A stretch of DNA of 38,806 bases from contig CANBER010000007.1 in NCBI GenBank assembly GCA_947367795.1, positions 1 through 38,806 on the forward strand. The letters are read 5' to 3'. This document shows positions 4,881 to 38,806 of this stretch, piece by piece. The notes beneath the pieces were generated by a model. The model was not told the origin of the DNA, did no database searches, and worked only from the letters and a program-made list of their open reading frames with translations. This DNA is from an uncultured Candidatus Saccharibacteria bacterium (GTDB lineage: Bacteria; Patescibacteriota; Saccharimonadia; Saccharimonadales; Saccharimonadaceae). Both the position numbers and the translations under genes were made by a program. Within the stretch, counting starts at the first letter, position 1, and every line of letters begins with the position of its first letter.

Positions 4881-4941
4881 AATAGCTCCTCAATTAAATT
4901 GACCCCATTATATCACAAAAAGAGGAGATTTTCTACTAATC

Positions 4942-9710: not shown

Positions 9711-11605
9711 TGCACCCACACCCCAATCCGCTGCGCGCCCATATTGCCTCGCGGCTGGACTTCGGCATAGTGCAGTGCATCGGCATCCGCCGCCAAGTAA
9801 CGCATCAGCGCCGCTTGCGCCGCCTTGATATTCTCCTGTTTGCCCTTCCAGGTCGCCAAGACCGGTTCCTCCAGCGCTCGTGAAAACGCAAAAGTCATCG
9901 GCCAAGGGAACGGGGAATTTTGCATAATCGCGGTTAGGTTCTTCGTAGCCGTTTTTGGATCTTGTCCACCACTTAGTAGCCAAATCCCAGCCAAATATTT
10001 CGGCGCCGCATGTCTCAAAATCGCTGCCGTCGCTACACCGATATCTTCGGGTGTCGCCACGATCTCTGATTTTTCACCATTAATCACCATTCCTATTTTC
10101 AGGATACAGCCCGCGAGTACCACGTGCCGCTGGGCCAATTTCTCAAACACTCGGTCCAGCACTCGCGCTGTCACCTCGGCGGATTTTTCGATCGGATGCG
10201 CACCATCTCTCAGAATATCCACCTCCACTACCGGCACAATCCCGATCAGCTGACATTCTCGCGCAAAATTTGCCAGCTCGTCCGCATTTTGTTCCACCGC
10301 GAAAAATCCTGGCTTCTCTTTACCAATCGTAAACGCCGCCCGCCATTTGGCGAAACGGAACCCCTTATCATAATAAGTCCGCAGCCGCCCCGCCAAGCCC
10401 TCCTCGCCCAGCGTGTGTGTCTCGTCCGACCGTGCCATGGCTTGTAACCCCAGATCCACCTTAATCCCCGGGATAATCCCTCGATCCGTCAAACTCTCCA
10501 AAATATTTCGTCCATTCGGCAGCTTGATCTGTGCAGTTTCTTCGGACAAAATCACTCCGTTGAGGTATTCTCGGATGTTCGGCGTGGCAAAGATCATCCG
10601 ATAGAATTCCTGCGCCCGCTGCCTGGTATACGCGATGTCAAACTTCTCAAACCGCCGCATCAAGCTCTTCTCCGATTCGTCCGCCGCCAGAATCCCCTTA
10701 CCCGAAGTCATCAGTGAGCGTGTGATTAGCTTGAGATCCGCCCGTTTTGTCAGCTCTTCCTTGGCCAGCTCCTGCAATTTCTCCGCTGACAACACCGACT
10801 CTAGCGTGGCGTTCTCCGCATTTAATTTTGCCCACAAGAGAGCATCGGCCGGCGTCCCGCCCACTGCGATCACGCCCAAAATCGTCGCCACGATCGTAGA
10901 ATATACCGTCAGATGCGTCATCATATCCGTCCGGTCCAGACTCCAGCTCTCCTCCGCGTCGCTCAAATACAGCTTCCTCGGGCTGATGCGGCAGACCAGC
11001 TGCGTATTCGGCTTATCTAACTCGATTTTGTCCACGATCTTTTCGTCTGTATGCACCGGCGGCTCATCTTCGACGAAGAGCACATCTGCCATCTCCGCCA
11101 GGCGCTGTCCGTCTGGCGTAGCGTGCTTTTCGGCGTGCACTGCCAGTTTTGTGCTTGGGGAAAACTTCATAAAATTCTTCAGCTCATCTACAAGACGTGC
11201 CGACACCACCGTCGAGCGGTCTACTAGAATCCATTCTGGCCTCCCACTCGGCATCGACCAATCGGTCGGTTTGCGCTCGCTCGGCACGAAATACGTAATT
11301 CCACCCTTGTGCGACAAGATATAGCGGTATCCTGACGGGTCGTTCGCCCAGATGATTTCGCCTGATTTGATCTCGCTTTTGGAATTCAAAATTCCCGCGT
11401 CAATTCCGAGCTTACTCAGTACTGCAAGCGACACCGCAGCGCCGCCGTAGACGCTCGTCCTCCGGAAAAAACTATGCGCCTCTCCGTTAAATCCTAACTC
11501 CAGCCAATTAATGCCATGCTCGTCCTGCTCAAACTCATTCTGTCGCTCATCCAGCTTCAGATAGACATCTTTTAACACATTCCCGACGATCAAAATCTTG
11601 CTCAT
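9707..11605 (-). CDS. Fusion of a degenerate PfkB-like domain and class I fructose-bisphosphate aldolase
   Basis: Residues 295-632 are a class I aldolase, which reversibly splits fructose-1,6-bisphosphate: GKGILAADES (302-311), FAKWRAAF, GCILKIGMV with the likely Schiff-base lysine at 503, LSGGQ, and FAFSRALE...WKGK. Residues 1-285 resemble a PfkB (ribokinase-type) sugar kinase, with the family's first signature GGAAVSLAVLSKLG (54-67). The second signature, normally DTxGAGD with the catalytic Asp, is replaced by DMMTHLTVYST (227-237), so kinase activity is unlikely. Typical aldolases of this class are about 340-360 residues. The start is leaderless in style (TATACT six bases before the ATG). 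It is monocistronic, convergent with the 9104 gene. Confidence 0.9.
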   Translation of the reverse strand: MSKILIVGNVLKDVYLKLDERQNEFEQDEHGINWLELGFNGEAHSFFRRTSVYGGAAVSLAVLSKLGIDAGILNSKSEIKSGEIIWANDPSGYRYILSHKGGITYFVPSERKPTDWSMPSGRPEWILVDRSTVVSARLVDELKNFMKFSPSTKLAVHAEKHATPDGQRLAEMADVLFVEDEPPVHTDEKIVDKIELDKPNTQLVCRISPRKLYLSDAEESWSLDRTDMMTHLTVYSTIVATILGVIAVGGTPADALLWAKLNAENATLESVLSAEKLQELAKEELTKRADLKLITRSLMTSGKGILAADESEKSLMRRFEKFDIAYTRQRAQEFYRMIFATPNIREYLNGVILSEETAQIKLPNGRNILESLTDRGIIPGIKVDLGLQAMARSDETHTLGEEGLAGRLRTYYDKGFRFAKWRAAFTIGKEKPGFFAVEQNADELANFARECQLIGIVPVVEVDILRDGAHPIEKSAEVTARVLDRVFEKLAQRHVVLAGCILKIGMVINGEKSEIVATPEDIGVATAAILRHAAPKYLAGIWLLSGGQDPKTATKNLTAIMQNSPFPWPMTFAFSRALEEPVLATWKGKQENIKAAQAALMRYLAADADALHYAEVQPRGNMGAQRIGVWVQ

Positions 11606-11653
11606 GTTTATAGTATATCACACCTGCTCCCGTTTTTCATCCCTCTTGAGAAT

Positions 11654-11670
11654 GTTGTAAATTTCACAAC
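11654..11670. promoter_or_regulatory. Imperfect palindrome between divergent genes
   Basis: GTTGTAAATTTCACAAC has perfect five-base outer arms (GTTGT/ACAAC) and a near-symmetric AT core. It lies between the aldolase fusion and the 11894 gene and could be an operator; no regulator is identified. Confidence 0.25.
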
Positions 11671-11762
11671 AGAGTTTACCGGTGTAGAACAAGGGTAAGT
11701 CTGCTTTTACGACAAAATGACGGAAAAAGTCTTGCCAAATCCTTAAATAATCATAAAAACCA

Positions 11763-11791
11763 TTGACATTTTTGCAAAAGTGTGCTACAAT
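11763..11791 (+). promoter_or_regulatory. Consensus promoter of the 11894 gene
   Basis: TTGACA (11763-11768), 17-base spacer, TACAAT (11786-11791) with TG at the extended -10. It is a near-duplicate of the promoter at 8963-8991. Confidence 0.85.
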
Positions 11792-11893
11792 GAAAGTATA
11801 AGGACAATGGCGTCACTGTCTCTCAGATCGTCGATGCTAATCCTGGCATTTTAAGAGATAGTATGACGTCGCTTTCAAGAATAGGAGGAAAAT

Positions 11894-12700
11894 ATGAAAG
11901 CAAAAGTAAAGGCATTATTGAGCATGGGGCGTAGCATATTACGGCGGAACACACCGCGAAAAACACTGCTATTCATGGTTTTAACCAGTGCAATCGCAGT
12001 CCCAGCGACCATTTATATGGTGCACTTCTACAGTACTCTCAACTATTTTAATGATGGAATGGGGTGGATCGCCCTGGAAGCCTCCGAAACTAGCAGCTAC
12101 GGCACAGAACTGGACATAGAGGTTATGGCGGTTTCGTATGAAAAACCGCTGAAAGTGCTGAAAGATGCGATAACAGGCAAGTCATCTCTTTGGATGATCG
12201 ACGTTCGGATGACCAACCTTGACCAATATCTCAAAGATCAGGCTGAAACTTTTATGATTGATCCCGATGGAGGGGCACCTGTGATGATCGGTTTGGAGGG
12301 GGTAGGAAATGGCATATCGACCTCAACAAAATCACTAAAGATACAATCAACGGAGCCAATCGTTAAAGCCAATGACAATGACCAGGTAGAATACAGGCTC
12401 GGCAGTCATCCAGACGAGGCAGAAGCTGAATTTACTTATTGGGTTTGGATGACAGGAGAATCCGGGGGCGAATGTCAGCAGATATTCACTGTTAATGGTT
12501 ATGTTTCCAACGAGATTCTCAGAGATTGGGCCTTCAACCTGCGTGAATATCACAAGGTCATACTCAGTCTGGCTGTCGGACAAATCGCACTGGTCTGGGT
12601 GGTTATATTGTGGTTTTATGCGATGTGTCTTGGAGTGAGAATATTGCTTCTCCAGCGGCAGTATAATCGTTTAAACGCGCTCAAGAACTCTCACGTCTAA
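11894..12700 (+). CDS. Membrane protein of unknown function, two TM segments
   Basis: The 268-residue protein has a basic N-terminus, a membrane segment at about 24-46, a polar domain of roughly 175 residues and a second membrane segment at about 222-252 with a short basic tail. The central domain would face outside if both ends are cytoplasmic. I recognise no family. An AGGAGG site lies seven to eight bases before the ATG. The 90-base leader contains a long imperfect hairpin (about 11811-11876) and a 15-codon upstream ORF (11807-11854). With its own promoter and terminator it is a self-contained unit. Confidence 0.75.
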   Translation: MKAKVKALLSMGRSILRRNTPRKTLLFMVLTSAIAVPATIYMVHFYSTLNYFNDGMGWIALEASETSSYGTELDIEVMAVSYEKPLKVLKDAITGKSSLWMIDVRMTNLDQYLKDQAETFMIDPDGGAPVMIGLEGVGNGISTSTKSLKIQSTEPIVKANDNDQVEYRLGSHPDEAEAEFTYWVWMTGESGGECQQIFTVNGYVSNEILRDWAFNLREYHKVILSLAVGQIALVWVVILWFYAMCLGVRILLLQRQYNRLNALKNSHV

Positions 12701-12714
12701 CTCTCTAACCTATC

Positions 12715-12738
12715 AAGGCCTGGTTCAACCAGGCCTTT
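12715..12738 (+). terminator. Terminator after the 11894 gene
   Basis: AAGGCCTGG-TTCAA-CCAGGCCTT followed by a short T run. Confidence 0.9.
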
Positions 12739-12759
12739 TGACTTTTATTGATTTTACTC

Positions 12760-13032
12760 CTAGCGCACTTCTACGCGCACGCGAGGCACACTTTTGCCAG
12801 AAAAATGGCATTTTTTAGTCTTCACGAAGGTGACTACGCCATCTTTGGCGGCATGGATCGTGAAATTTCGGCTCATGTAAGTGCCCGGACCAGCGATCTT
12901 GGTAGCACCAGTTTGGCGGACCAAAACTTCGCCATTTTTGACTTTTTGTCCACCGAATCGCTTCACGCCAAGCCTCTGCCCAGCATTGTTATGGATGTTC
13001 TTGGCGGTACCGCCAGCTTTGACATGTGACAT
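12760..13032 (-). CDS. rpmA: 50S ribosomal protein bL27
   Basis: bL27 reaches toward the peptidyl-transferase centre of the large subunit. The 90-residue protein shows AGGTAKN, AGQRLGVKRFGGQKV, VLVRQTG and the Gly-rich KIAGPGTYM; length is normal. The N-terminus MSHVKAGGTA is of the unprocessed kind (no Firmicutes-type cleaved leader). Its ATG lies one base after the stop of the methyltransferase gene, and AAGGAAG within that gene's end serves as its ribosome site, so the two are translationally linked. rplU (bL21), the usual neighbour, is not here. Confidence 0.95.
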   Translation of the reverse strand: MSHVKAGGTAKNIHNNAGQRLGVKRFGGQKVKNGEVLVRQTGATKIAGPGTYMSRNFTIHAAKDGVVTFVKTKKCHFSGKSVPRVRVEVR

Positions 13033-13033
13033 A

Positions 13034-14275
13034 TTATTTCTTCCTTAATGCTATTATTTCTCGGGCCACGACCTGACCATCACGGTGGTATAATAGGTCC
13101 TCCTGTCCCAGATTCCTAAAACTCTTTACATTATAGCCCAGATTCTGAATTTCGTCAAGAATATTCAGCCTTTCGTAGTGCCCGTCCGGTCTCAGCCACG
13201 CCGGCACCGCGATCGTGACTGGCGTTTCTGACTGAATCTGTTCTAACAGGTTCTTCAAAAACCCTAGCACGATCTGTTTGCAAACCTGTTTTTCTTGTTT
13301 CAGCTTGATCTCAGCTGGCGGCAGCGACATCGGCTGCCCGAGATACGTTTCGCACGCCACCGCGTCAATTGGCGGCTGCCACCGAAACTTCGTCGCATCA
13401 CCTTGAGTGATTATGGTCTGCTGTCGCGTCAAAGGGTTCACCAATTCCTCGAGAGTATTTTCCGGCTGAGCCGGGTCAAAATCACGGCCCGAGCAGAGCG
13501 AGGGATTCGATTTTGAGAGGCTCCCCGACTCTCGAGAATGGTGACCCTCGCAAACAGCAGACCGTAACCAGTCAAGGTTCTTGCGACTATATTCCACCAT
13601 TCGTTCATTAATATCGGTGCCATAGGGCGTGTACCCCATCAGCGCTGCCTCCTGCAACACTACCCCCGTCCCGCAAAATGGATCCAATACTCGTGCCCCC
13701 TGCGGTAAATCACCGCAAAGGTTGATCAAAATCTGCGCTAACTTCGGCGGCAACATCCCCACTTTGGCGTCACGTGCTGGTCGAGCCTGATCACGCTTAG
13801 TATAGGAATCAATATCTTGTACCGCGATGACTCGATAAAAACGCTTCTCGTATTTAATTAGCTCAATTTTAGTTGAAGTGAAAAGATGATTGTGATAGCT
13901 AGTCGCGGTCGAAATCACGGCTTCTTTGTTTGGTACTACCCGCACGCTTCGCCCCGATTTAGCTAAGAAGCGCTTTAATTTCAAAGCCTCACCTTGAGCC
14001 CTAAACGCAGTGGCCCCTTTGGAATAATCCGACACGCCAAGTGTGATCTTCCTATCGCTCGGTAAACTCTTGAGGAATTCGTAAATTGGCTCCGTCAGTT
14101 CTTCGGCTAGCTTCAGACTGCCTCCCAGTCGATGCAAAGTTGGGGCGGCAGCTGTTTTGATTTCAAACTCAGCCAGTCGCCACTCCGGATCTACCGGGCT
14201 CACCCGAGCGTACAGACTCTCAAGCTCCACGATCGATATTTTCGGCTGCCGCCCCAAAACTGCAAGATATCTCAT
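13034..14275 (-). CDS. TRM11/Trm-G10-like tRNA (guanine-N2) methyltransferase
   Basis: The N-terminal ~160 residues resemble the THUMP-containing half of TRM11-type enzymes; the C-terminal half is a Rossmann methyltransferase with ARPARDAKVGMLPPKLAQIL, the SAM loop VLDPFCGTGVVLQEA and YGTDIN. The catalytic D/N-PP-Y of the superfamily is replaced by CETYLGQP, so the acceptor-site chemistry is altered or the role differs. About 32 residues (HSRESGSLSKSNPSLCSGRD and what follows) are encoded by a palindromic insertion, see 13444-13539. The start looks leaderless (TATAAT nine bases before ATG). It forms an operon with rpmA. The guanine-N2 role is inferred from the family. Confidence 0.75.
   Translation of the reverse strand: MRYLAVLGRQPKISIVELESLYARVSPVDPEWRLAEFEIKTAAAPTLHRLGGSLKLAEELTEPIYEFLKSLPSDRKITLGVSDYSKGATAFRAQGEALKLKRFLAKSGRSVRVVPNKEAVISTATSYHNHLFTSTKIELIKYEKRFYRVIAVQDIDSYTKRDQARPARDAKVGMLPPKLAQILINLCGDLPQGARVLDPFCGTGVVLQEAALMGYTPYGTDINERMVEYSRKNLDWLRSAVCEGHHSRESGSLSKSNPSLCSGRDFDPAQPENTLEELVNPLTRQQTIITQGDATKFRWQPPIDAVACETYLGQPMSLPPAEIKLKQEKQVCKQIVLGFLKNLLEQIQSETPVTIAVPAWLRPDGHYERLNILDEIQNLGYNVKSFRNLGQEDLLYHRDGQVVAREIIALRKK
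13444..13539. repeat. In-frame palindromic insertion element (96 bp)
   Basis: On the coding (minus) strand the outer arms ATTCTCGAGAGT and ACTCTCGAGGAAT pair, an inner pair CAAAATC/GATTTTG pairs again, and a third CCC/GGG closes the tip. The span is 96 bases, exactly 32 codons, in a surface position of the methyltransferase. This resembles REP-like or Rickettsia-type palindromic elements that insert inside genes without breaking the frame. Only one copy is seen here. Confidence 0.65.
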
Positions 14276-14302
14276 ATATTTTATATTATACCATACCTCG
14301 AC

Positions 14303-14332
14303 ACAAAAAGCCCCTCCGAGGAGGGGTGCTTT
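14303..14332 (-). terminator. Terminator after the 14353 gene
   Basis: On the minus strand AAAGCA-CCCCTCC-TC-GGAGGGG-CTTTTTG: a GC stem ending in five T. Confidence 0.85.
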
Positions 14333-14352
14333 CGTCCAAGAAGAGAAGGGAA

Positions 14353-15354
14353 CTATTCTTCATCACCGAGGTTGAAATACGCCTCGACCACCTGTTTCCA
14401 GAGACTACATCCAGTCTCAAATCCCGGCGTGCCTAAAATTTTATTGATCAGATCTACTCCATCCAGCCCAGTCAATACGTATCCATCCGGATCGATATAA
14501 TTGGTATAAACCAAAGTCTTTACGGTCTCCCTCCAGTCCTTCGGCAGTTGCTCGGTATAAGAACGCAGCCTCGAATCATCCAAGCTGATCTGCAAGATCC
14601 CATTCCTCATGCTCAACAAACTTCCCGGCACTTCATTCACAGTTTTGCCTGCGATCAAATCATCCGGAAAAGTTGCCGGCAGATAAACGTACCTCAAGAT
14701 CGGCAGCATCTCATATCGCATCATCCCATGCAGTTTCCGCCGTACCTCATACATGGCCTGTTCGTACTTTTCACAAGTGCGTTTAACTTCTTTGCGCCGC
14801 TGCCGATCCCCGTCGAAGAAAGACCTCCAGGGCTTCTGTGCCACCTGGTGCTTCATGAAGGCATAGTGTGTGTACGCTTCGTCATGTGCAGCGCTTAGTC
14901 TCTTATGCGCCTCCCTCAACACGTCCTGGTGTACCTCCCAGACGATCAGATGATGCACGGCTGCCATTAGGGTCAACAAATGCAATGAACGCTGGTTCAA
15001 TCCCTGAGTCACATGCGTGTAGAGTTGGCGTTCATCTTTATGTGACAGATCGAGCCAGGCATACTGCATTAAATCTAAAAGATGCGGCACAATAAACCCG
15101 CTCTCTTCCAGTACCTCATATCCCGGTTTCGGCTCCTCAAACGGCCAATAAAACTCCGCCGCCCGAGTGATTGCATGGATGGTTTTCAGATAGGTCTTGC
15201 GGAGTTTCATATAATCCTCCGGCGCATCGATCTGCCACCTCCCTCCTTCCATGTAGTCCAGTACATTCCATAGGCTGGGCGGATCGTTTTTTACGCCATA
15301 GCGCGTCCTGAGATTTATTCCCAGCTCTTCCATGATTTCAGTTACGCTTTTCAT
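14353..15354 (-). CDS. Unknown soluble protein, 333 aa
   Basis: I recognise no family. The protein is mostly helical and rich in Trp, Tyr, His and Arg, with no membrane segment; a basic KRTCEKYEQ-type helix lies near the middle. The ATG at 15354 was chosen because AAAAGGAGG lies just before it; the longer frame's ATG at 15453 overlaps the -10 box and cannot be in the message. A strong TTGACT-N17-TATAAT promoter (15480-15452) and the 14303 terminator make it monocistronic. The ~90-base leader has a GGGTA-GAAA-TACCC hairpin. It belongs to the window's set of independent accessory units. Confidence 0.75.
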   Translation of the reverse strand: MKSVTEIMEELGINLRTRYGVKNDPPSLWNVLDYMEGGRWQIDAPEDYMKLRKTYLKTIHAITRAAEFYWPFEEPKPGYEVLEESGFIVPHLLDLMQYAWLDLSHKDERQLYTHVTQGLNQRSLHLLTLMAAVHHLIVWEVHQDVLREAHKRLSAAHDEAYTHYAFMKHQVAQKPWRSFFDGDRQRRKEVKRTCEKYEQAMYEVRRKLHGMMRYEMLPILRYVYLPATFPDDLIAGKTVNEVPGSLLSMRNGILQISLDDSRLRSYTEQLPKDWRETVKTLVYTNYIDPDGYVLTGLDGVDLINKILGTPGFETGCSLWKQVVEAYFNLGDEE

Positions 15355-29127: not shown

Positions 29128-30693
29128 ATGGATAAGGAATTTCTTGAGAATATACCAAATGCTGGTCGTCTCATGGAGGCACTACGTAATACCGGTTATA
29201 GTAATATTTCAGCAATTTCGGACCTTGTCGACAACTCTATCGACGCCGAAGCTACTAAAATTCACATCAAACTTCAACTTTCGCCTCAAAATCTTCAAGA
29301 CAGTCAGGTTATTGTCGCCGACGATGGCTATGGTATGAGCTGGGAGACGCTACGCCAAGCCATGCGGCTTGGCTCTGATGTTTTTCATGACCTTGGCCGA
29401 GACCTCGGCAAATATGGCATGGGATTAGTTACCGCATCAATTTCTATCGGTCGCCGCTTGACTGTCATTAGCCGCAAAGATGGATTGACTAATACGGCGA
29501 TTCAAGACCTTGATACAATCATCGAGCGTAACCGCTTTGAAATCAGTCTACGCCCGGCCACCGAATCTGAAAGCGAGCTTTTTGACCAGGAAACTGGCAA
29601 CGCTACTTCTGGTACAGTTGTAATTATTAGCAATTGTGACCGCATTCAATATGCCAAGGAAAATGATTTCGCGAAAGCTTTGGAAGATGAAATTGGTAGA
29701 ATTTTCCGAGTATTCCTACGCTCGGCTGATAGAAATATTTATATTAATGACCAAAAGGTCGAAATGACCGACCCACTTTGGCTCAATGACTCCAAAACTG
29801 ACATAATTCTGGATGAAGACTGTGAAATTGAACTCAATGGTGTTCCAAAGCAAATTCATCTTCGTGCCGTGCTCCTACCAGATTTCGGGCGTCAGGTCAA
29901 TATCGCTTGCGGATTTAATATGAAAAATCAGGGATTTTATCTCATGCGCAATCGCCGCGAGATTGCCTCTGGCATTACGCTTGGCATTATTAAAAAACAT
30001 AACGACTACAACCGTATGCGCATCGAGCTAGAGTTTGGTAGTGACCTTGATGACGATATGGGTATTAATTTCACCAAACGCGACGCCAAGCCTAGCCAAA
30101 TTATCATTGATAAAGTTACAGAAATCACGGATAGCTTGCTTGAAACCGTGCGTCGACGCATGAAAAGTGAGCAGACTGCTCGTCGCCTAGAACGCGCTGC
30201 TAAAGCTTCAGTCGATGAAACTAGTCCAAGCGCCTCCGACTCGTCAACTGCAGAACCTCAACCCAACAAAACCGAGCCTAGCTCCACTCCGACGAGCTCC
30301 ACCCTTGAAAACTCCGACCAAAAATCTCCGTCTGAGCCTCAATCTATCAAAGCGTCTACATCATCTGGCAATAATTCCGTCTCTACTCCGAGTTCCACAA
30401 TCGTTAATTCTAACTCCGCTCCGGCCCCAGTTTTCGAATTTGAGGAGCGTCCGCTGGTCGGCGAGCGCGCCTTTGACATTATTACTGTTGGTCCAAAACG
30501 CATCATTTCGTATAATGTCAATAGTCCGTTCTATCAAAAAATGGTCAGTAATGCCGCCAATCCTGCACAGTGTCGCGCCGTACTCGACCGTGTGATTACG
30601 GCTACCTTGACTGCTTCTGCTCTAACTAAGTTCGATGACGCTGCAGTCAAAGCTTTTAATCGCAACTTCTTGCAAGCTTTACAGGAGGATTAA
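29128..30693 (+). CDS. MutL/MORC-like GHKL ATPase, defence-associated type
   Basis: Residues 1-340 form a GHKL ATPase with the Bergerat-fold motifs: N-box SDLVDNSID (31-39), G1 DDGYGM (65-70) and G2 LGKYGMGLVTA (93-103), followed by a transducer-like region with FYLMRNRREI. A Ser/Pro/Thr-rich linker (about 361-435) connects to a small C-terminal domain with ISYNVNSPFY. MutL/MORC-type ATPases are known to occur with restriction-modification systems. The next gene starts at the base after its stop, and a type I system follows. It has GAAGGA before the ATG. No nuclease motif is visible. The exact role is unknown. Confidence 0.85.
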   Translation: MDKEFLENIPNAGRLMEALRNTGYSNISAISDLVDNSIDAEATKIHIKLQLSPQNLQDSQVIVADDGYGMSWETLRQAMRLGSDVFHDLGRDLGKYGMGLVTASISIGRRLTVISRKDGLTNTAIQDLDTIIERNRFEISLRPATESESELFDQETGNATSGTVVIISNCDRIQYAKENDFAKALEDEIGRIFRVFLRSADRNIYINDQKVEMTDPLWLNDSKTDIILDEDCEIELNGVPKQIHLRAVLLPDFGRQVNIACGFNMKNQGFYLMRNRREIASGITLGIIKKHNDYNRMRIELEFGSDLDDDMGINFTKRDAKPSQIIIDKVTEITDSLLETVRRRMKSEQTARRLERAAKASVDETSPSASDSSTAEPQPNKTEPSSTPTSSTLENSDQKSPSEPQSIKASTSSGNNSVSTPSSTIVNSNSAPAPVFEFEERPLVGERAFDIITVGPKRIISYNVNSPFYQKMVSNAANPAQCRAVLDRVITATLTASALTKFDDAAVKAFNRNFLQALQED

Positions 30694-32448
30694 ATGGTAG
30701 ATTCCGCCCAACTCACTCTTGACGACATCAGTCCAGCTATTAACAGCATCAGCTCAGTTGCTGATAATAACAATTCTAGCGCTAGCACTATTAACCCCAG
30801 CACTAATTACCCCGTTGAAGCCTTACGCTGCTCTCCGCATATTACAGAAGTTCTCAAAACGCACGGTATCAATGTTGTCGCCGACCTCCTGCCGCTCACC
30901 GATGTCGAGCTTCAGGAGCTCACTGGTCTTCGCCCAAGCAGCGTTAAAAAAATCTCTGAAGGACTACGTGCTTTAGTTGGTATCGAGCTTGGTCACTATC
31001 TCGCCAATTTATCCACCAAATATCCTCCCAATCCGGAAAATCCCGAGGATGCCGTCCTGTTGCAGCCGATTGACCAATTTAATCTCAGCCCGCGTACCAT
31101 GAACGCCTTATATAGCAACGAGATCAAGAACCTTTACGATTATTTGATGTGCGACTGCGTTGGTGACTTGCGCGGTTTTGGTTCAAAGAGTCGGGATGAA
31201 ATGGATCGACTCATAGACTCTATTAATATGAACCCGGAGGCCCATCTTATCTCTAAGCGCCCGGCCCAAAGTTTTTATGAATTTATCCAAAGTCAGTGCA
31301 CCGAGCGTGAGCGTGATCTTCTTGAACGCTACTTTGGGTTAATCGATGATCAGCCCTTGATCGGGCACGCCATGGCGGAACACTATGGCATCACATCCTC
31401 ACGCTTGCACCAGATTCTCCAAAAAGGCCTCCACAAAGTTATACGTGGTGTTGCCAGTCAACAGATTATTCCTGAAACTCTTCGGGACTTACGTCAGACT
31501 GTTGCTGCTGGTGGCCAACGCATTAATCAAATCGCCGAGCTTGATAGTTTTTATACCAATCTCGGGATTGTACGGCTGCTTTGTCGTATTGAACCCTTCA
31601 GCATCTATGGCAGGCACTTGAAGCATGCGTGGCTAATTCCGCGCGACAAGCAACGGGTTTATGACTGGGATTTTGTAGTAGCCAAAAACCTCATCCGCGA
31701 GTCTAATATACCGCTTCCGCTGAGCGAACTTGCCGAGAAAAGTGGGATTAGTGAGAAGATGCTTGCAGACCTGGATGGATTTGAAATTCTCGACGGCCAA
31801 ATCAGTACCCAGAAGATTTACCGTATGACGCGCGCTCAAGAATATATGTTGAAGGTGGGGCGGCCGGTCAAAGTTGCAGAGATTGCTGAGCTGGTTGATA
31901 TTCCCATCGAACAAGCTCGCAATCTACTACTCTATATGCCCGAAGCTGTCAATATTGGCCGTTCGGTTTATGCCCTCAAAGAGCAAGGATTTAGCAATGC
32001 TAGCACTGTTGAACTGGTTTATAAAATTATTGCTGACATTGATGATCCGGTGCCGCGCCAACAAATCTATGATTATGTGCAACATTATCGTCAAATTGGG
32101 AAATCCGCTGTCGACCTTGCGATCTATGATAACCCCGATCTCTTTATGGAATTTGCCAGTAATACCGTTGGTCTAGCTGACTGGGAATTTCGTAACTATC
32201 AGCCCGCCGAGAAAACCACTCGCCCAACATACGAAATCCCGGCCGAGACTGCCGTTTTGGAGATCATCAACAATGCGGACGAACCGCTTACTTCTGACCT
32301 CATCCGCGAACGCATCCGTGAGACCTATGGCGACCGCGCCTCATCCAAGGCACCTACGGTGATGGCTGCGCTTTCTGCCCTAGTCAAAGCACGTCAAATC
32401 CGCCAGCTCAAACTATCCCAAGCTGCGGTGTATATGAAGAAGGGGTAA
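30694..32448 (+). CDS. Alpha-CTD-like / sigma-region-4-like multi-HTH protein
   Basis: The 584-residue protein combines several nucleic-acid-binding parts: a polar N-terminal tail; two helix-hairpin-helix units resembling the RNA polymerase alpha C-terminal domain (about 42-95 and 126-177, the latter with GFGSKSRDEMDRL); a unit resembling sigma region 4 (about 196-250, TERERDLLERYFGL then YGITSSRLHQILQKGL); and three or four winged-helix-like segments (about 325-582). It contains no catalytic motif. The start codon directly abuts the ATPase stop with GGAGG upstream, so the two are a translational pair. Domain calls are by pattern; it may touch RNA polymerase or DNA. Confidence 0.75.
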   Translation: MVDSAQLTLDDISPAINSISSVADNNNSSASTINPSTNYPVEALRCSPHITEVLKTHGINVVADLLPLTDVELQELTGLRPSSVKKISEGLRALVGIELGHYLANLSTKYPPNPENPEDAVLLQPIDQFNLSPRTMNALYSNEIKNLYDYLMCDCVGDLRGFGSKSRDEMDRLIDSINMNPEAHLISKRPAQSFYEFIQSQCTERERDLLERYFGLIDDQPLIGHAMAEHYGITSSRLHQILQKGLHKVIRGVASQQIIPETLRDLRQTVAAGGQRINQIAELDSFYTNLGIVRLLCRIEPFSIYGRHLKHAWLIPRDKQRVYDWDFVVAKNLIRESNIPLPLSELAEKSGISEKMLADLDGFEILDGQISTQKIYRMTRAQEYMLKVGRPVKVAEIAELVDIPIEQARNLLLYMPEAVNIGRSVYALKEQGFSNASTVELVYKIIADIDDPVPRQQIYDYVQHYRQIGKSAVDLAIYDNPDLFMEFASNTVGLADWEFRNYQPAEKTTRPTYEIPAETAVLEIINNADEPLTSDLIRERIRETYGDRASSKAPTVMAALSALVKARQIRQLKLSQAAVYMKKG

Positions 32449-32554: not shown

Positions 32555-35098
32555 GTGTCCCAAAAGGAAGCAAAAGCACGCCTCAAGATAAACATGCTCC
32601 TTTCTGATGCTGGGTGGAGATTGCTTGATAGCGAAGATGGCCCAGCGAATGTAGACGTGGAAAACAAGGTAGATATTGAAAACCCCGGTGATGATTTCGA
32701 GAATATAAGGAGGGGCTTTATTGACTATCTTCTTCTAGATTCTAACCAAAAGCCAATTGCCGTTCTTGAAGCGAAGCGCGAAAGCATTCCGCCTCTTTCC
32801 GCCAAAGAGCAGGCTCGTGATTATGCCAACTCGATACATGTTCGCTATGTAATTCTCAGCAACGGTAATACTCATTACCTATGGGATATGCAATTCGGTA
32901 ACCCGGAGCCGATAAGCAGCTTTCCGTCACTAAGCTCCCTTGAAGATGAGAAGAAATGGATCCCAGATGTCGACGCCCTCGTCAATGAGGACGTCTCTCG
33001 TACTTATATTGCCGAATCGCAAATGCCGGAGATTAAGCTTCATCCAGATTACATTAACGAAAGTACTCGTAAAGAGTTTATCGACAGGAATAAGTTAAAA
33101 ATTCTTCGCAATTATCAAGTTCACGCTATTCAGGCTGTTCAGAAGGCGGCTAGTAATGGTAAGAAGCGCTTCTTATTGGAAATGGCCACTGGTACCGGTA
33201 AGACGCTGACCTGTGCTGCAATTATTAAGCTATTCCTGAAGACCGGAAATGCTGGGAGGGTCCTCTTTCTGGTTGATCGAATTGAGCTTGAGAACCAAGT
33301 AAAGAAGTCCTTTAACCAGTCTATCGGTAAGGATTACGTTGTAAAAGTCTGGAAAGAGGATCGTGATAATTGGAAGACGGCAGATATCGTAATAAGTACA
33401 GTCCAATCGCTTTTAGCAAGCGGTAGATATCGTGACTTTAGTCCAAATGATTTTGACTTGATTATTTCTGATGAGGCTCACCGGTCCATCGGTGGTAATG
33501 CTAGGGCTGTCTTTGAGTATTTTACTGGATACAAAATTGGGCTTACGGCTACTCCGAAGGATTTCCTCAAAAACACTGATCCGGGATCAAATTCCGAAAA
33601 AGAGTTTGAACGTCGGGAACTTCTAGATACTTACCGGACATTTGGCTGTGAGTCAGGGCAACCGACTTTTCGCTACGATCTCAAGGATGGCGTCAACGAT
33701 CCTGATGGGCCATTCTTGGTAAATCCTATCATCCTTGACGCAAGGACCAATATTACTTCTCAATTGTTAGCTGACGAGGGCTACGCCGTTCATCATGTTG
33801 TCGATGGTGAGGATATTGATGAGAATTTCGGTATACGAGATTTTGAAAAAACCTTCTTCAATGACGAGACTAATCGCGTCTTTTGTGAGACGTTTATGAA
33901 ATACGCCGCAAGAGACCCATTGTCTGGCGAAATTGGAAAAACAATTATTTTTACTGTGAGTCAGAGACATGCCGAAAAGATTGTACAAATGCTTAATCAA
34001 ATTGCTATGGAATTATTTCCGGGCAAATATAATTCTGATTTTGCCATCCAAATCACAAGCAATGTTCGTGATGCACAACAATTTTCTATTAATTTTTCCG
34101 AAAACAACCTACGTGGACATACGAGATGGCTGCCAGATTATGAAAGTAGCCGCACAAGGGTTGCTGTTACTGTGGGTATGATGACGACCGGATATGATTG
34201 TTCTGATTTATTGAATCTTGTATTCATGCGCCCAGTATTTAGTCCGTCTGACTTTATTCAAATGAAGGGCCGTGGTACTCGTCTTCATGTCTTCAAGTAT
34301 GTAGACTATACTGACGATGAAAAAGTCACTGAAGTCAAGAAGGAAAACTTTCGCATTATTGATTTCTTTGCAGTTTGTGAATACTTTGAAGAGAAGTATG
34401 ATTACGACGCCCCATTAGTAGTCCCTGCTAATAAGGCTCAAGGCATCATGATTGTTTCACCAGGGTCAACTTCAGATACGTCTTTGCCAGAAATAGCGAT
34501 TATGCGTGGGGTAGAACTTGGTGAGGACGACGAATTGCAGAACTTGGATAAGACGGTAATTGGTAAAGAAGGTATGCGTGTCGACCGAGAAATGTTTCGC
34601 AGTTTTCAGGAAGAAGTGCAGTCTAATACTGAGTTTGTGAAACTTTATGAGGAGTTTCGTGACAAAGCGATTGAGTACTTCAAAACCTATATTCTGAATC
34701 AGCCAAATTTCTACATGACACCAGAAAAGATACGTAAGGCTTTGGGTCTGGATCGGCGTCTGGATCTTGGCGAAATTCTTGATAAAATTATGTTGGATAA
34801 AGAACCGCCCACAAGAGACCAATATATCCAGCAGAAATTTGATGAGTTTATCGCCGATAAAAAGCTATCTGACGAACTGGTTGGAGATATGTATAATGAC
34901 GCCTTTGAACTGTTTGACGCTTACATTACAAATCGGAGGATTGCTGAAGCAATTGATGAAAAGAACTTTAGTTTATTAGCCGGATTTGGATCTTTGACGA
35001 TGAAACAATTAATTCATCTAGGAGGGGAACGAATAAACCAGATTACAGAATATATCCGAGATTACATTAACGTAGAAAAATTAAGAGTAAAGGACTAG
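32555..35098 (+). CDS. hsdR: Type I restriction enzyme, R subunit (EcoEI-like)
   Basis: HsdR cuts unmethylated DNA after ATP-driven translocation. The 847-residue protein has an N-terminal nuclease with Asp57, Glu72 and Lys74 (FIDYLLLD then VLEAKRE), superfamily 2 helicase motifs TGTGKT (212-217), SDEAHRS (305-311), LTATP and KGRGTRL, and a C-terminal EcoEI-type domain. The start is a GTG with GGAGAAAG 11 bases before it; no better ATG is in frame. It heads hsdR-hsdM-hsdS with a four-base gap to hsdM. Confidence 0.96.
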   Translation: MSQKEAKARLKINMLLSDAGWRLLDSEDGPANVDVENKVDIENPGDDFENIRRGFIDYLLLDSNQKPIAVLEAKRESIPPLSAKEQARDYANSIHVRYVILSNGNTHYLWDMQFGNPEPISSFPSLSSLEDEKKWIPDVDALVNEDVSRTYIAESQMPEIKLHPDYINESTRKEFIDRNKLKILRNYQVHAIQAVQKAASNGKKRFLLEMATGTGKTLTCAAIIKLFLKTGNAGRVLFLVDRIELENQVKKSFNQSIGKDYVVKVWKEDRDNWKTADIVISTVQSLLASGRYRDFSPNDFDLIISDEAHRSIGGNARAVFEYFTGYKIGLTATPKDFLKNTDPGSNSEKEFERRELLDTYRTFGCESGQPTFRYDLKDGVNDPDGPFLVNPIILDARTNITSQLLADEGYAVHHVVDGEDIDENFGIRDFEKTFFNDETNRVFCETFMKYAARDPLSGEIGKTIIFTVSQRHAEKIVQMLNQIAMELFPGKYNSDFAIQITSNVRDAQQFSINFSENNLRGHTRWLPDYESSRTRVAVTVGMMTTGYDCSDLLNLVFMRPVFSPSDFIQMKGRGTRLHVFKYVDYTDDEKVTEVKKENFRIIDFFAVCEYFEEKYDYDAPLVVPANKAQGIMIVSPGSTSDTSLPEIAIMRGVELGEDDELQNLDKTVIGKEGMRVDREMFRSFQEEVQSNTEFVKLYEEFRDKAIEYFKTYILNQPNFYMTPEKIRKALGLDRRLDLGEILDKIMLDKEPPTRDQYIQQKFDEFIADKKLSDELVGDMYNDAFELFDAYITNRRIAEAIDEKNFSLLAGFGSLTMKQLIHLGGERINQITEYIRDYINVEKLRVKD

Positions 35099-35102
35099 TT
35101 AA

Positions 35103-36551
35103 ATGGATTACACCCACTTCAAACAAATTATCGATAATTCCCGAGACATACTGATGGGCAAACTGCCCAGTCCAATTGCGCAGGTAGATGCGATCTCGTA
35201 TGCACTGATTTATAAGTTTATGTCGGATACTGACGATGACTCGGCGGCATTAGGTGGCAAACGCACCTACTTTTCTGGGGAATATGAGAAATACGGCTGG
35301 CACAACCTTATGAGCCCGACAATTACTGGCGCCGATCGAGTAATTCTCTATCGTAACGCTCTTGAAAATATGAATCGCAACCCGAACATTCCTCCACTTT
35401 TCCGCGAAATTTTTAATGGTGCGACTCTCGGCTTTACCGATTCGAACACACTCAATCTCTTTCTTCGCGAAATAGATAAGATTAAGCAAAGCTCTGGAGA
35501 CTCCATAGGCGATGCCTATGAATATCTGCTCTCGACGATGGGTTCACAGGGCAAACTTGGACAATTTCGCACGCCGCGTCATATCATTGATATGATGGTG
35601 GAGTTAATCGATCCAGATAAATCAGATAAAATCCTAGATCCTGCCTGCGGCACGGCCGGATTTTTAATCTCTGCATACAACTGGATCAAGAAGAAGCACA
35701 TTGAAAAAGAGCGGCTAAGCAGTGAAGATATAGAAAAAATTCATCGTAACTTCTATGGTTTTGATATCGAGCCAAACATGACCCGCATTGCTCGAGTGAA
35801 TTTATTCCTTCATGGATTTAAATCCCCGCACATTATCGAGCATGATACGCTTAGCTCTGAAGATTATTGGGATGATCGATATGATGTAATTATTGCGAAT
35901 CCGCCCTTTATGACGCCAAAAGGTGGTATTACTCCGCATAAAAAGTTCGGTATTACCTCAAATCGTGCGGAATTACTCTTTGTCGACTATATCGCTTCAC
36001 ATCTAAAGCCGAATGGTCGCGCAGCAGTGATTGTTCCTGACGGTGTTCTTTTTGGCAGCAGTGTTGCTCACAAGACGCTCCGGAAAGAAATCGTCGAAAA
36101 TAAGAAACTTCAAGCCGTAATCTCGATGCCCTCAGGTGTCTTTAAACCATATGCTGGAGTTTCTACAGCCATCCTGGTCTTCACAAACTCAAATAATGAG
36201 AAGACCGACAAAGTCTGGTTCTATGATATGAAGACAGACGGCTATAGTTTAGATGATAAACGTTCTAAACTTAAAACAAGTGACATATCTGACATTATTG
36301 CGAGGTTCAAAAATCTCGAGGAAGAGAAAGATCGGAAACGTAATGAACAGTCATTCTTCATTGATAAGGAAGAAATTGTAAAGAATGACTACGATCTCAC
36401 AATTAATAAATATAAAGAAGTTGAGTATGAGAAAATTGAATATCCGCCAACTTCTGAAATTATCGCCGAAATTAAGAGATTGGACCGAGAGGCTTCAGAA
36501 AATTTGGCCGAACTTGAAAAATTATTAAATGAAACAAATTCGGATTTGTAG
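35103..36551 (+). CDS. hsdM: Type I modification methyltransferase, M subunit
   Basis: HsdM methylates adenine at N6 in both half-sites chosen by HsdS. The 482-residue protein has the N-terminal helical domain, SAM motif DPACGTAGFL (179-188) and catalytic NPPF (266-269) with the TPKGG loop. Its last codons (TNSDL-stop) lie within the direct repeat that starts at 36535. It begins four bases after hsdR and ends two bases before hsdS, so the three are one operon. Confidence 0.97.
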   Translation: MDYTHFKQIIDNSRDILMGKLPSPIAQVDAISYALIYKFMSDTDDDSAALGGKRTYFSGEYEKYGWHNLMSPTITGADRVILYRNALENMNRNPNIPPLFREIFNGATLGFTDSNTLNLFLREIDKIKQSSGDSIGDAYEYLLSTMGSQGKLGQFRTPRHIIDMMVELIDPDKSDKILDPACGTAGFLISAYNWIKKKHIEKERLSSEDIEKIHRNFYGFDIEPNMTRIARVNLFLHGFKSPHIIEHDTLSSEDYWDDRYDVIIANPPFMTPKGGITPHKKFGITSNRAELLFVDYIASHLKPNGRAAVIVPDGVLFGSSVAHKTLRKEIVENKKLQAVISMPSGVFKPYAGVSTAILVFTNSNNEKTDKVWFYDMKTDGYSLDDKRSKLKTSDISDIIARFKNLEEEKDRKRNEQSFFIDKEEIVKNDYDLTINKYKEVEYEKIEYPPTSEIIAEIKRLDREASENLAELEKLLNETNSDL

Positions 36552-36611
36552 GTATGAAAGTTAAGTTCACAGATCTAGTTAATTTTACGGGAAGAGCTTG
36601 TAGACCTTTCG
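36535..36611 (+). repeat. Direct repeat, copy 1 (hsdM end / hsdS start)
   Basis: These 77 bases recur exactly at 38730-38806. The repeat begins with CAAAT-TCGG-ATTTG, a five-base inverted repeat around a four-base centre, and covers the last hsdM codons and the first 19 hsdS codons. The bases before it differ (GAAA here, AATT in copy 2). Confidence 0.95.
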
Positions 36612-37708
36612 GTGGGCAAAAATACTACATTAGCACGGGCTGCGTTCACGACGATCATATTGCTGACAACGAGGTTGAGATTATTGATTACGAAAATAAG
36701 CCGTCTAGGGCTAACCTCGAGGTGATGGATGGTGATATCATATTTGCAAAAATGCAGGGCACAAAAAAGACGCTCGTAATTAATGATGAGTTAGCAAATC
36801 ATATCTATTCGACCGGTTTTTGTGCGATTTGCCCTAAAAATAATACCATAACACATGACTGTCTGTATTATTTGATATCAAGTAAACTCTTTCTGGATGC
36901 TAAGGATAAAAATTGTTCTGGCGCAACACAGAAAGCTATAACTAAAGCAGGTCTAAGTCGAATTGAACTAAGTATCCCAAGTATTAAAGATCAGGAAAAG
37001 ATTAGTGTTGCCCTGAAAAAGTTAGATGCTATCATATGGCTTAGAAATCGTCAACTGCAGCAACTCGATACTCTCGTCAAAGCCCGATTTGTCGAGATGT
37101 TCGGATTGCCTGGAACCGACCCATTTGGATATGGAAAAACCAAACTCGGAAGTTGCTGTGAGATAAATCCTAGGAAAGCCGACGACAAGAGATTGGTTAA
37201 TAATATTAAAGTTTCTTTTGTGCCCATGCCTTCTGTTTCCGAAAATGGCGAAATAGATGCGTCGGATATACGTACCTATAATGAGGTAAAGAAAGGTTTT
37301 ACTTATTTCGCGGAAAATGATGTACTGTTCGCTAAGATTACTCCGTGTATGGAGAATGGTAAGGGTGCAGTAGCTAAAGGCCTAATAAACGGCGTAGGTT
37401 TTGGGTCTACTGAATTTCATGTTTTGCGCCCAATTGACAACCTAAGTAATCCGCGCTGGATCTACACAGTAACATCATTTAAAACCTTCAGAAAAGATGC
37501 GGAATCCAATATGACTGGCAGTGCTGGACAAAGAAGAACGCCAGCATCGTTCCTAGAGAATTACGAGATATCAATTCCTCCAATCGAACTTCAAGACCAA
37601 TTCGCCAACTTTGTTTCTCAAGTCGACAAATCAAAATTTGCCATTCAAAAATCTCTCGAAAAAACTCAGCTCCTTTTTGATAGCCTAATGCAGGAGTATT
37701 TTGGTTAA
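36554..37708 (+). CDS. hsdS: Type I specificity subunit
   Basis: HsdS recognises the bipartite DNA target. The 384-residue protein has the usual two halves: a first target-recognition domain (about 1-140), a conserved helical spacer (about 145-187, EKISVALKKLDAIIWLRNRQ), a second target-recognition domain (about 195-340, with PRKADDKR and TGSAGQRRTP) and a C-terminal helix (about 348-384, ending FDSLMQEYFG). The 5' end lies inside the 77-base direct repeat. The recombinase follows 50 bases downstream. Confidence 0.94.
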   Translation: MKVKFTDLVNFTGRACRPFGGQKYYISTGCVHDDHIADNEVEIIDYENKPSRANLEVMDGDIIFAKMQGTKKTLVINDELANHIYSTGFCAICPKNNTITHDCLYYLISSKLFLDAKDKNCSGATQKAITKAGLSRIELSIPSIKDQEKISVALKKLDAIIWLRNRQLQQLDTLVKARFVEMFGLPGTDPFGYGKTKLGSCCEINPRKADDKRLVNNIKVSFVPMPSVSENGEIDASDIRTYNEVKKGFTYFAENDVLFAKITPCMENGKGAVAKGLINGVGFGSTEFHVLRPIDNLSNPRWIYTVTSFKTFRKDAESNMTGSAGQRRTPASFLENYEISIPPIELQDQFANFVSQVDKSKFAIQKSLEKTQLLFDSLMQEYFG

Positions 37709-37714
37709 GAATCT

Positions 37715-37754
37715 AATCCTTTCTTCAGTGGAGGTATTAACCTAAGAAAGGATT
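37715..37754 (+). promoter_or_regulatory. Hairpin that sequesters the recombinase ribosome site
   Basis: AATCCTTTCTT (37715-37725) pairs perfectly with AAGAAAGGATT (37744-37754). The AAAGGA before the recombinase ATG (37759) is inside the right arm, so translation should be reduced while the hairpin stands. There is no T run, so termination is less likely. Confidence 0.6.
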
Positions 37755-37758
37755 CCGC

Positions 37759-38727
37759 ATGGAAGAAGCCATCAAGGGCATTTTGGTGGATATGGACGAA
37801 TATCTCACCGCCAATCAATCGCAAAAATTACAGCGCGTGCTCGTTTCGCGCCTCATCAGGCGTACCGAAACCGAAAAGAGCATCCCAAATGCTCAGTATT
37901 TAACAATGTTTTTGAATGCCAAAAAGATCGAAGGTTGTTCTGAACGCACTCTAGCATATTATAAAACCACAATTGAAAGGTTGCTTGAATCGGTTCATGA
38001 ATCGATTCGCAAGGTTACGACAAATGACATTCGGGAATACCTTGCCGATTATCAAAGTTGGAATAATTGCAGTAAGACGACGATCGATAATGTCCGCCGC
38101 AATATCTCAAGCTTTTTTACTTGGCTTGAGGAGGAAGACTATATCATCAAGAGCCCTATGCGTCGCATTCATAAAATCAAAGTTACTCAAGTTGTTAAGG
38201 AAATTATTTCTGATGAAGAAATCGAGAAGATGCGTGACGAGTGCAAGAGTTTGCGCGATCTGGCGATTATTGATCTGCTTTATTCGACAGGAATACGGAT
38301 TGGCGAATTAGTGCAATTGAATGTTGACGATATTAATTTTGAAGAACGTGAATGCATTGTCTTCGGTAAGGGGAGTAAAGAGCGTCGAGTTTATTTTGAT
38401 GCAAAGACTAAAATTCACCTGCAAGGTTATATCAATAATCGTGTCGACAAGAATCCGGCGCTCTTTGTCACATTGCACGCACCGTATGCGCGCTTAAAAA
38501 TCTCTGGTATTGAAATTCGTTTGCGTCGTCTGGGGCGTGAGCTTGGGATTAGTAAAGTCCACCCTCACAAATTTCGTCGCACTATGGCGACACGCGCAAT
38601 TGACAAGGGGATGCCGATTGAGCAAGTCCAAAAGTTACTTGGCCACTCACAAATTGACACCACAATGCATTATGCCATCGTAAACCAGACCAATGTAAAA
38701 GTTTCTCATCGCAAATTCATTGCCTAA
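37759..38727 (+). CDS. Tyrosine recombinase (integrase) next to hsdS
   Basis: The 322-residue protein has an N-terminal core-binding SAM-like domain (about 45-135) and a catalytic domain with Arg180 (STGIRIGEL), Lys207 in GKGSKERR, His270-x-x-Arg273 (HKFRR), His296 (LGHSQ) and nucleophile Tyr305 (MHYA). The set is complete. It is of the XerC/D or phage-integrase type; recombinases of this kind next to hsdS genes invert or exchange specificity segments in other bacteria. Its ribosome site is sequestered by the preceding hairpin, and the direct repeat begins two bases after its stop. Confidence 0.92.
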   Translation: MEEAIKGILVDMDEYLTANQSQKLQRVLVSRLIRRTETEKSIPNAQYLTMFLNAKKIEGCSERTLAYYKTTIERLLESVHESIRKVTTNDIREYLADYQSWNNCSKTTIDNVRRNISSFFTWLEEEDYIIKSPMRRIHKIKVTQVVKEIISDEEIEKMRDECKSLRDLAIIDLLYSTGIRIGELVQLNVDDINFEERECIVFGKGSKERRVYFDAKTKIHLQGYINNRVDKNPALFVTLHAPYARLKISGIEIRLRRLGRELGISKVHPHKFRRTMATRAIDKGMPIEQVQKLLGHSQIDTTMHYAIVNQTNVKVSHRKFIA

Positions 38728-38729
38728 TT

Positions 38730-38806
38730 CAAATTCGGATTTGTAGGTATGAAAGTTAAGTTCACAGATCTAGTTAATTTTACGGGAAGAGCTTGTAGAC
38801 CTTTCG
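38730..38806 (+). repeat. Direct repeat, copy 2, reaching the window end
   Basis: The last 77 bases of the window equal 36535-36611 base for base, in the same orientation, including the CAAAT-TCGG-ATTTG palindrome. It begins two bases after the recombinase stop. Confidence 0.95.
38749..38806 (+). CDS. Start of a second hsdS-like gene (partial)
   Basis: Within repeat copy 2 the hsdS ATG and first 19 codons are repeated exactly and run off the window. It is either the start of a second hsdS with the same 5' end and possibly another recognition domain, or a junction belonging to an excised circular form of 36535-38729. The window cannot decide. Confidence 0.6.
   Translation, partial: MKVKFTDLVNFTGRACRPF

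What the first reader, a model, noticed from the sequence alone, without database searches (positions are those of the whole stretch)
36535..38806. Candidate rearranging specificity locus: hsdS and its recombinase lie between identical direct repeats that begin at a palindromic core
hsdS and a complete tyrosine recombinase are bracketed by two exact copies of a sequence of at least 77 bases in the same orientation. Each copy starts precisely at CAAAT-TCGG-ATTTG, a shape suited to a tyrosine-recombinase core site (two short inverted arms around a few central bases), and sequence identity begins exactly there. Recombination between the sites would delete or circularise hsdS plus recombinase, or insert cassettes that swap the whole specificity gene while keeping the hsdM stop and hsdS start. 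Known hsdS phase-variable loci usually use inverted repeats; a direct-repeat, cassette-exchange layout would be different.
Basis: partly seen in the sequence, partly recalled or inferred. Interest (0 to 1): 0.85.

Follow-up and report, generated by a model that had tools for sequence, protein, structure and literature searches.

The report
Recombinase-shuffled restriction specificity gene locus
A tiny Saccharibacteria genome carries a DNA-restriction locus whose target-choosing gene sits beside a recombinase between matching direct-repeat sites, so it can probably be popped out and swapped; such loci are known from pneumococcus, but this branch adds an extra site that frees the whole gene.

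Summary
hsdS (36554-37708) and an intact tyrosine recombinase (37759-38727) lie between two exact direct copies starting at CAAAT-TCGG-ATTTG. The figure 77 is an assembly number: copy 2 is the last 77 bases of the contig, and 15 other pairs of contig ends in this genome share exactly 77 bases. The true repeat length is unknown, but the junction is probably real: 25 of 80 relatives fetched with the recombinase (and this window) have the same kind of site within 60 bp after the recombinase stop. The same genome holds a second, complete direct-repeat hsdS-recombinase-hsdS locus.

Relatives show three recombinase-type sites per hsdS: S5 (hsdM/hsdS boundary), Smid (central) and S3 (3' end). Smid is conserved at codon level. 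hsdS repeats across the recombinase are direct in 52 of 71 loci and inverted in 3. Module duplications in three loci begin on these cores, and a fourth in part.

Best reading: a tvr/SpnIV-like excision-reintegration specificity switch. It is a new variant, because S5 also frees the hsdM-adjacent half, which is fixed in pneumococcal tvr. Direct layouts are known (Kwun 2018) but fell outside the inverted-repeat REBASE survey. Switching here is inferred, not shown.

The parts
32555..35098 (+). hsdR, type I restriction subunit (847 aa), upstream of hsdM
   Evidence: Pfam ResIII 3.7e-40, HSDR_N_2; PADLOC REase_I 2.4e-60
35103..36551 (+). hsdM, type I methyltransferase (482 aa); last codons and stop overlap and abut the S5 core
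   Evidence: Pfam N6_Mtase 3e-71; PADLOC MTase_I 7.5e-137
36535..36548 (+). S5 site copy 1: CAAAT-TCGG-ATTTG, at the hsdM 3' end / hsdS 5' boundary
   Evidence: S5-like sites 88 in 83 sequences vs 3.0 in shuffles
36554..37708 (+). hsdS, specificity subunit, two TRDs (384 aa), open
   Evidence: Pfam Methylase_S 1.6e-26, two stretches
37077..37099 (+). Smid site TCAAAGCCCGATTTGTCGAGATG in the central conserved region (codes KARFVEM)
   Evidence: codon-level constraint in 70 loci
37627..37640 (+). S3 site CAAAT-CAAA-ATTTG near the hsdS 3' end
   Evidence: same sequence in both sister species
37715..37754 (+). hairpin (AATCCTTTCTTC / TAAGAAAGGATT) holding the recombinase Shine-Dalgarno; putative expression brake
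   Evidence: -15.5 kcal/mol for the 68-nt stretch; 64 of 82 recombinase genes have a start-proximal stem of at least 8 vs 2.5 in shuffles, 56 different 3' arms
37759..38727 (+). tyrosine recombinase (322 aa), catalytic residues present
   Evidence: Pfam Phage_integrase 3.1e-36; relatives 64-83% identical
38730..38743 (+). S5 site copy 2, 2 bp after the recombinase stop, direct orientation
   Evidence: same position in 25 of 80 relatives
38730..38806 (+). second copy of the hsdS start, cut by the contig end at the assembler's k = 77

Best explanation
A phase-variable type I restriction-modification locus that works like pneumococcal tvr. The recombinase acts at short sites made of near-palindromic arms (CAAA[T/G]...ATTTG) around a 4-bp spacer that differs by site type: S5 (TCGG here) at the hsdM/hsdS boundary, Smid (CCCG) in the middle of hsdS, S3 (CAAA) near its end. 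Copies of one type lie in direct orientation on both sides of the recombinase, because a second hsdS starts right after it. Recombination between like sites excises a circle carrying the recombinase with all or part of an hsdS. Reintegration at another copy of the site puts a different hsdS, or half of one, next to hsdM and so changes which DNA motif is methylated and cut. Copy 2 at the contig end is most likely the start of that second hsdS, carrying the same first module as in L072; a tandem duplication or a circle are the alternatives. Shown here: the sites, orientation, conservation, module-exact duplications in relatives, and the junction in the assembly. Inferred: that the recombinase cuts these sites, that circles form, and that specificity switches in living cells.
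For: The same recombinase family sits between hsdS genes in relatives, same direction in 57 of 60. hsdS1/hsdS2 share short direct repeats at S5, Smid and S3, all with the same kind of core. S5-like sites: 88 vs 3.0 by chance; 25 of 80 relatives have one within 60 bp after the recombinase stop, as here. Smid is held at codon level (GCC 0.96 vs 0.16 background, CGA 0.96 vs 0.14, GTC 0.87 vs 0.13; downstream codons at background) and is nearly absent from hsdS genes not linked to a recombinase. Duplications away from contig ends fall on cores: 605 bp on C6 starts at AAATGATAATTT; L072's 522 bp runs from 2 bp before S5 to just past Smid; L103 has a 2273-bp tandem unit with the crossover inside CAAATTGAAA; L098's repeat starts at a core (its copy 2 is cut by the contig end). 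Recombinase catalytic residues intact. The mechanism is demonstrated for tvr (PMC6265443).
Against: No reads, circles or alternative arrangements of this genome could be examined. No contig in the bin begins with sequence from inside the repeat, so the second hsdS is not actually seen. Homology of this recombinase to TvrR was not tested. The window has no toxin-antitoxin gene between hsdS and recombinase. In the two closest relatives the hsdS after the recombinase is inverted.
Confidence: 0.78

Rival explanations
1. Copy 2 is not a second hsdS but the joint of an excised circle, or a tandem duplication of the hsdS-recombinase unit, collapsed in the assembly graph as a loop. (This rival concerns only what copy 2 is; it is compatible with the excision-reintegration mechanism.)
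For: Identity runs at least 63 bp past the core into TRD1 coding sequence, where different hsdS genes usually diverge at once. No exit contig was found among the 76 contig ends. L103 shows a real tandem duplication of a 2273-bp recombinase unit.
Against: The contig runs unbranched through the recombinase-S5 joint, so that joint is dominant rather than a minor circle (inference from de Bruijn assembly). 25 relatives have the S5-like site in the same place, in many with a distinct second hsdS after it. L072 shows that an identical first module can simply be duplicated.
Confidence: 0.35
2. The locus is a classical inverting (PsrA/ivr-like) hsdS switch; the direct copy is incidental.
For: Sister genomes G222 and G285 have an inverted hsdS after the recombinase, with inverted S3 sites and a fully palindromic S5 core. 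L086 and L104 also have inverted repeats.
Against: No inverted repeat of hsdS here. The spacer TCGG is not palindromic. An inverted second copy could not yield the recombinase-to-S5 direct joint. Direct repeats 52/71 vs inverted 3/71 in the family.
Confidence: 0.1
3. Assembly artefact: the end copy is a false join.
For: Copy 2 is exactly the terminal k-mer length.
Against: A k=77 graph needs 77-mers across the joint in the reads (inference). The joint copies the standard anatomy of relatives, S5 2 bp after the stop codon. A second locus in the same genome has the direct layout away from any contig end.
Confidence: 0.05
4. The repeats persist by gene conversion or homologous recombination between hsdS paralogues, and the recombinase is a bystander.
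For: Long identical modules (605 bp on C6, 522 bp in L072) could be homogenised by conversion.
Against: Identity boundaries fall on the short cores. Codon-level constraint covers only the ~20-bp Smid core. The site tracks the recombinase.
Confidence: 0.07

Closest known systems
Streptococcus pneumoniae tvr / SpnIV excision-reintegration locus (Kwun et al. 2018, PMC6265443)
   Same: Tyrosine recombinase among same-direction hsdS modules; short and long direct repeats sharing a core; N- and C-terminal modules keep their places; hairpin before the recombinase; hsdR part of the locus; half-gene modules shuffle.
   Different: Here an extra site S5 lies at the hsdM/hsdS boundary, so the hsdM-adjacent module should be mobile too (fixed in tvr). 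hsdR is upstream of hsdM. No toxin-antitoxin pair between hsdS and recombinase in this window. Three site types with different spacers. Host is a Saccharibacterium. Circles are shown for tvr, not here.
S. pneumoniae ivr/cod (SpnD39III, Spn556II) inverting hsdS locus with PsrA (PMC4948785)
   Same: Locus-encoded tyrosine recombinase exchanging hsdS modules at a short repeat (15-bp IR1).
   Different: Inverted repeats and inversion; here direct repeats. The sister species with an inverted cassette come closer to it.
Inverted-repeat hsdS loci of the REBASE survey (PMC7394358)
   Same: Duplicated hsdS genes plus a recombinase/integrase in commensals and pathogens.
   Different: That survey looked only for repeats in opposite orientation, so direct layouts like this one fell outside it.

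Membership tests
tvr-type excision-reintegration type I R-M locus | Direct repeats in one orientation flanking the recombinase | tested here: met
   relatives 52/71
tvr-type excision-reintegration type I R-M locus | Short core shared by different repeat types | tested here: met
   S5, Smid and S3 share CAAA[TG]-N4-[A/G]TTTG-type cores
tvr-type excision-reintegration type I R-M locus | hsdS modules on both sides of the recombinase | tested here: inconclusive
   Only the first 77 bp of copy 2 are in the contig; met in the C6 locus and in 57 of 60 relatives with same-direction hsdS on both sides
tvr-type excision-reintegration type I R-M locus | Circular intermediate / alternative arrangements | not testable with these tools
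   No reads available
tvr-type excision-reintegration type I R-M locus | hsdM-adjacent module lacks a 5' repeat and stays fixed | tested here: not met
   S5 present at 36535
tvr-type excision-reintegration type I R-M locus | Toxin-antitoxin homologues (tvrAT) before the recombinase | tested here: not met
   Only 50 bp between hsdS and recombinase; some relatives carry a DUF3990 protein and a second small ORF there
tvr-type excision-reintegration type I R-M locus | Hairpin before the recombinase gene that limits its expression | tested here: inconclusive
   Hairpin present; effect on expression not testable
tvr-type excision-reintegration type I R-M locus | Recombinase orthologous to TvrR | not tested
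   No TvrR sequence was obtained; NCBIfam's only match over its cut-off is recomb_XerA_Arch
Inverting hsdS locus (ivr/PsrA type) | hsdS copies sharing inverted repeats | tested here: not met
   No inverted hsdS repeat in the window; met in sister species
Type I R-M system | hsdR, hsdM and hsdS adjacent and open | tested here: met

The most novel reading that the evidence does not exclude
A dual-mode specificity switch: near-palindromic S5 cores (TCGG here, fully palindromic TCGA in sister species) let one recombinase family both invert and excise/reintegrate whole hsdS genes, with three spacer-coded site classes controlling which module (first half, second half, whole gene) moves, and with modules also passing between Saccharibacteria species.
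Probability: 0.3. Interest if true: 0.65.

Novelty: new variant of a known kind. Interest (0 to 1): 0.5.

Why it matters
It suggests that programmed change of restriction specificity reaches ultra-small Saccharibacteria, and that direct-repeat (excision) layouts are common in one recombinase clade in gut bacteria although a published survey searched only for inverted repeats. The three site classes give a clear, testable code for which part of the specificity gene is exchanged.

Tried and rejected
Looked for a contig in the bin that continues copy 2: none of 76 contig ends matches inside the window apart from the window's own end. Considered classical inversion for this window and rejected it (no inverted repeat, wrong joint). 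Considered a pure assembly artefact and rejected it from the relatives. A viral-contig scan found 32 relatives of the recombinase (40-71% identical in the best segment) but was not followed. Papers: no hit for hsdS with Saccharibacteria or Lachnospiraceae in the held library. The hsdS control set without recombinase is small for the motif (4 cases, three of them from genomes whose hsdS lies by a recombinase locus), so one search is supportive, not decisive. One script for the sister species' recombinase leader failed to find its start (L170).
Full report
OBSERVATION. The window is the whole of contig C7 of an 860-kb, 38-contig genome. Its nearest recombinase relatives are same-genus genomes G222 (85%) and G285 (83%; the Saccharibacteria MAG record L028). 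Exact copies lie at 36535-36611 and 38730-38806, and both begin at CAAATTCGGATTTG. The order is hsdR 32555-35098, hsdM 35103-36551, hsdS 36554-37708, tyrosine recombinase 37759-38727. Recombinase catalytic residues are in place.

ASSEMBLY. Copy 2 is exactly the terminal 77 bases. I fetched both ends of all 38 contigs and found 15 other pairs of ends that share exactly 77 terminal bases. That is the signature of a k=77 de Bruijn assembly (inference). So the length '77' is not biological and the repeat may be longer. The joint itself should be in the reads, because each k-mer across it had to be seen (inference). No contig in the bin starts inside the window's repeat unit, so what follows is not known.

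SECOND LOCUS. Contig C6 (L108, minus strand) carries hsdM, hsdS-A, a 130-aa CdiA_C-domain ORF, a 55%-identical recombinase, hsdS-B and hsdR, all in one direction. hsdS-A and hsdS-B share an exact 605-bp 3' module as a direct repeat. Identity begins exactly at AAATGATAATTT and ends at AAATAGTTATTT plus ATGC. hsdS-A is split by two 49-bp tandem units, each beginning with the same core. This is away from any contig end.

RELATIVES. Eighty recombinase relatives from genome contigs (64-83% identical) mostly show hsdM-hsdS1-recombinase-hsdS2-hsdR in one direction: same direction in 57 of 60 with hsdS on both sides. Exact repeats of at least 20 bp across the recombinase are direct in 52 of 71 loci and inverted in 3. 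The direct repeats fall at three places: S5 at the hsdM stop / hsdS start (for example CAAATTCGGATTTGTAGGGATG), Smid in the central region (ATCAAAGCCCGATTTGTCGAGATGTTTGG), and S3 near the end (GTCGACAAATCAAAAGTTG). The window holds all three: S5 at 36535 and 38730, Smid at 37077, S3 at 37627. S5-like sites number 88 against 3.0 in shuffles. In 25 of the 80 relatives (plus the window; 26 of 83 sequences scanned) one lies within 60 bp after the recombinase stop, which is precisely the window's joint.

SITE FUNCTION. Over 117 Smid occurrences in 70 loci the codons are nearly fixed (GCC 0.96 vs 0.16 background, CGA 0.96 vs 0.14, GTC 0.87 vs 0.13, ATC 0.83 vs 0.21), while the Gly, Asp and Pro codons just downstream are near background. 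That is constraint on DNA, not protein. Among 57 control hsdS loci the motif was found in 16 places in loci with a recombinase piece and 4 without; three of those four come from genomes of recombinase loci and the fourth is L243, below. Repeat boundaries in L103 (2273-bp tandem unit, third core CAAATTGAAActtg, so the crossover lies inside CAAATTGAAA) and L072 (522 bp starting 2 bp before the S5 core and ending just past Smid) coincide with cores, and so does the start of the repeat in L098. L072 is the best model for the window: an identical first module in both hsdS copies.

SISTER SPECIES. G222 (L170) and G285 (L028) have hsdM-S5-hsdS1-S3-recombinase-inverted S3-inverted hsdS2-S5-direct hsdS3-S3-hsdR. 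Their S5 core is a perfect palindrome (CAAATTCGAATTTG), which would have no orientation and could serve inversion and excision (inference). Between G222 and the window the hsdM end (73%) and recombinase (75%) align but the hsdS body mostly does not. In a third species, G321, a remnant without a nearby recombinase keeps the start of hsdR and a second TRD 90% identical to the window's, the identity starting at Smid. Only 15 of 99 genus genomes have hsdS at all, and 3 of 295 family genomes have a close recombinase, so the system is sporadic.

CONTROL OF THE RECOMBINASE. 64 of 82 recombinase genes have a stem of at least 8 whose 3' arm reaches the start codon region, against 2.5 in shuffles, with 56 different 3' arms. 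In the window the stem 37715-37754 contains the Shine-Dalgarno. It could be an RNA brake, as the tvrR attenuator is, or a DNA operator; I cannot tell which.

KNOWN SYSTEMS. Pneumococcal tvr shuffles hsdS modules by circular excision-reintegration at direct repeats that share a core, with a hairpin and TvrT limiting the recombinase, and with the module next to hsdM fixed. The present locus works like tvr, but has a 5' site that should free that module and lacks tvrAT, so I file it as a variant, not as tvr. The ivr locus uses inverted repeats. The REBASE survey searched opposite orientation only.

LIMITS. Switching, circles and recombinase action are inferred. The continuation of copy 2 is unseen. 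TvrR homology was not tested. Relatives were picked by recombinase similarity, so counts describe that clade, not all hsdS loci.

Noticed in passing
window 37715-37754 and leaders of 64 of 82 recombinase genes: Conserved start-proximal hairpin with many different arm sequences in front of the recombinase gene; RNA brake or DNA operator.
   Followed up: partly
L108:10638-10778 (C6, minus strand): hsdS-A is split by two exact 49-bp tandem units, each starting with the core AAATGATAATTT; looks like a tiny excisable insert that switches the gene off.
   Followed up: partly
L108:9656-10048 (minus strand): 130-aa CdiA_C-domain ORF between hsdS-A and the recombinase of the second locus; in some Lachnospiraceae a DUF3990 protein plus a second small ORF sit there.
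   Followed up: partly
L170 (reverse complement 10458-14783); L028:9948-13430: Third hsdS runs in frame into hsdR, giving one 1442-aa open frame in G222 and the same start in G285: an hsdS-hsdR fusion.
   Followed up: partly
L261 (reverse complement about 4460-5290), genome G321: Decayed remnant: start of hsdR joined to a second TRD 90% identical to the window's, identity starting at Smid; no recombinase found nearby.
   Followed up: partly
window 29128-32448: MzaB-like HATPase protein and a protein with RNA polymerase alpha C-terminal and sigma region 4 domains directly upstream of hsdR.
   Followed up: no
L172-L203 (IMG/VR contigs): 32 viral-collection contigs carry relatives of the recombinase, 40-71% identical in the best segment; contexts not examined.
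   Followed up: no
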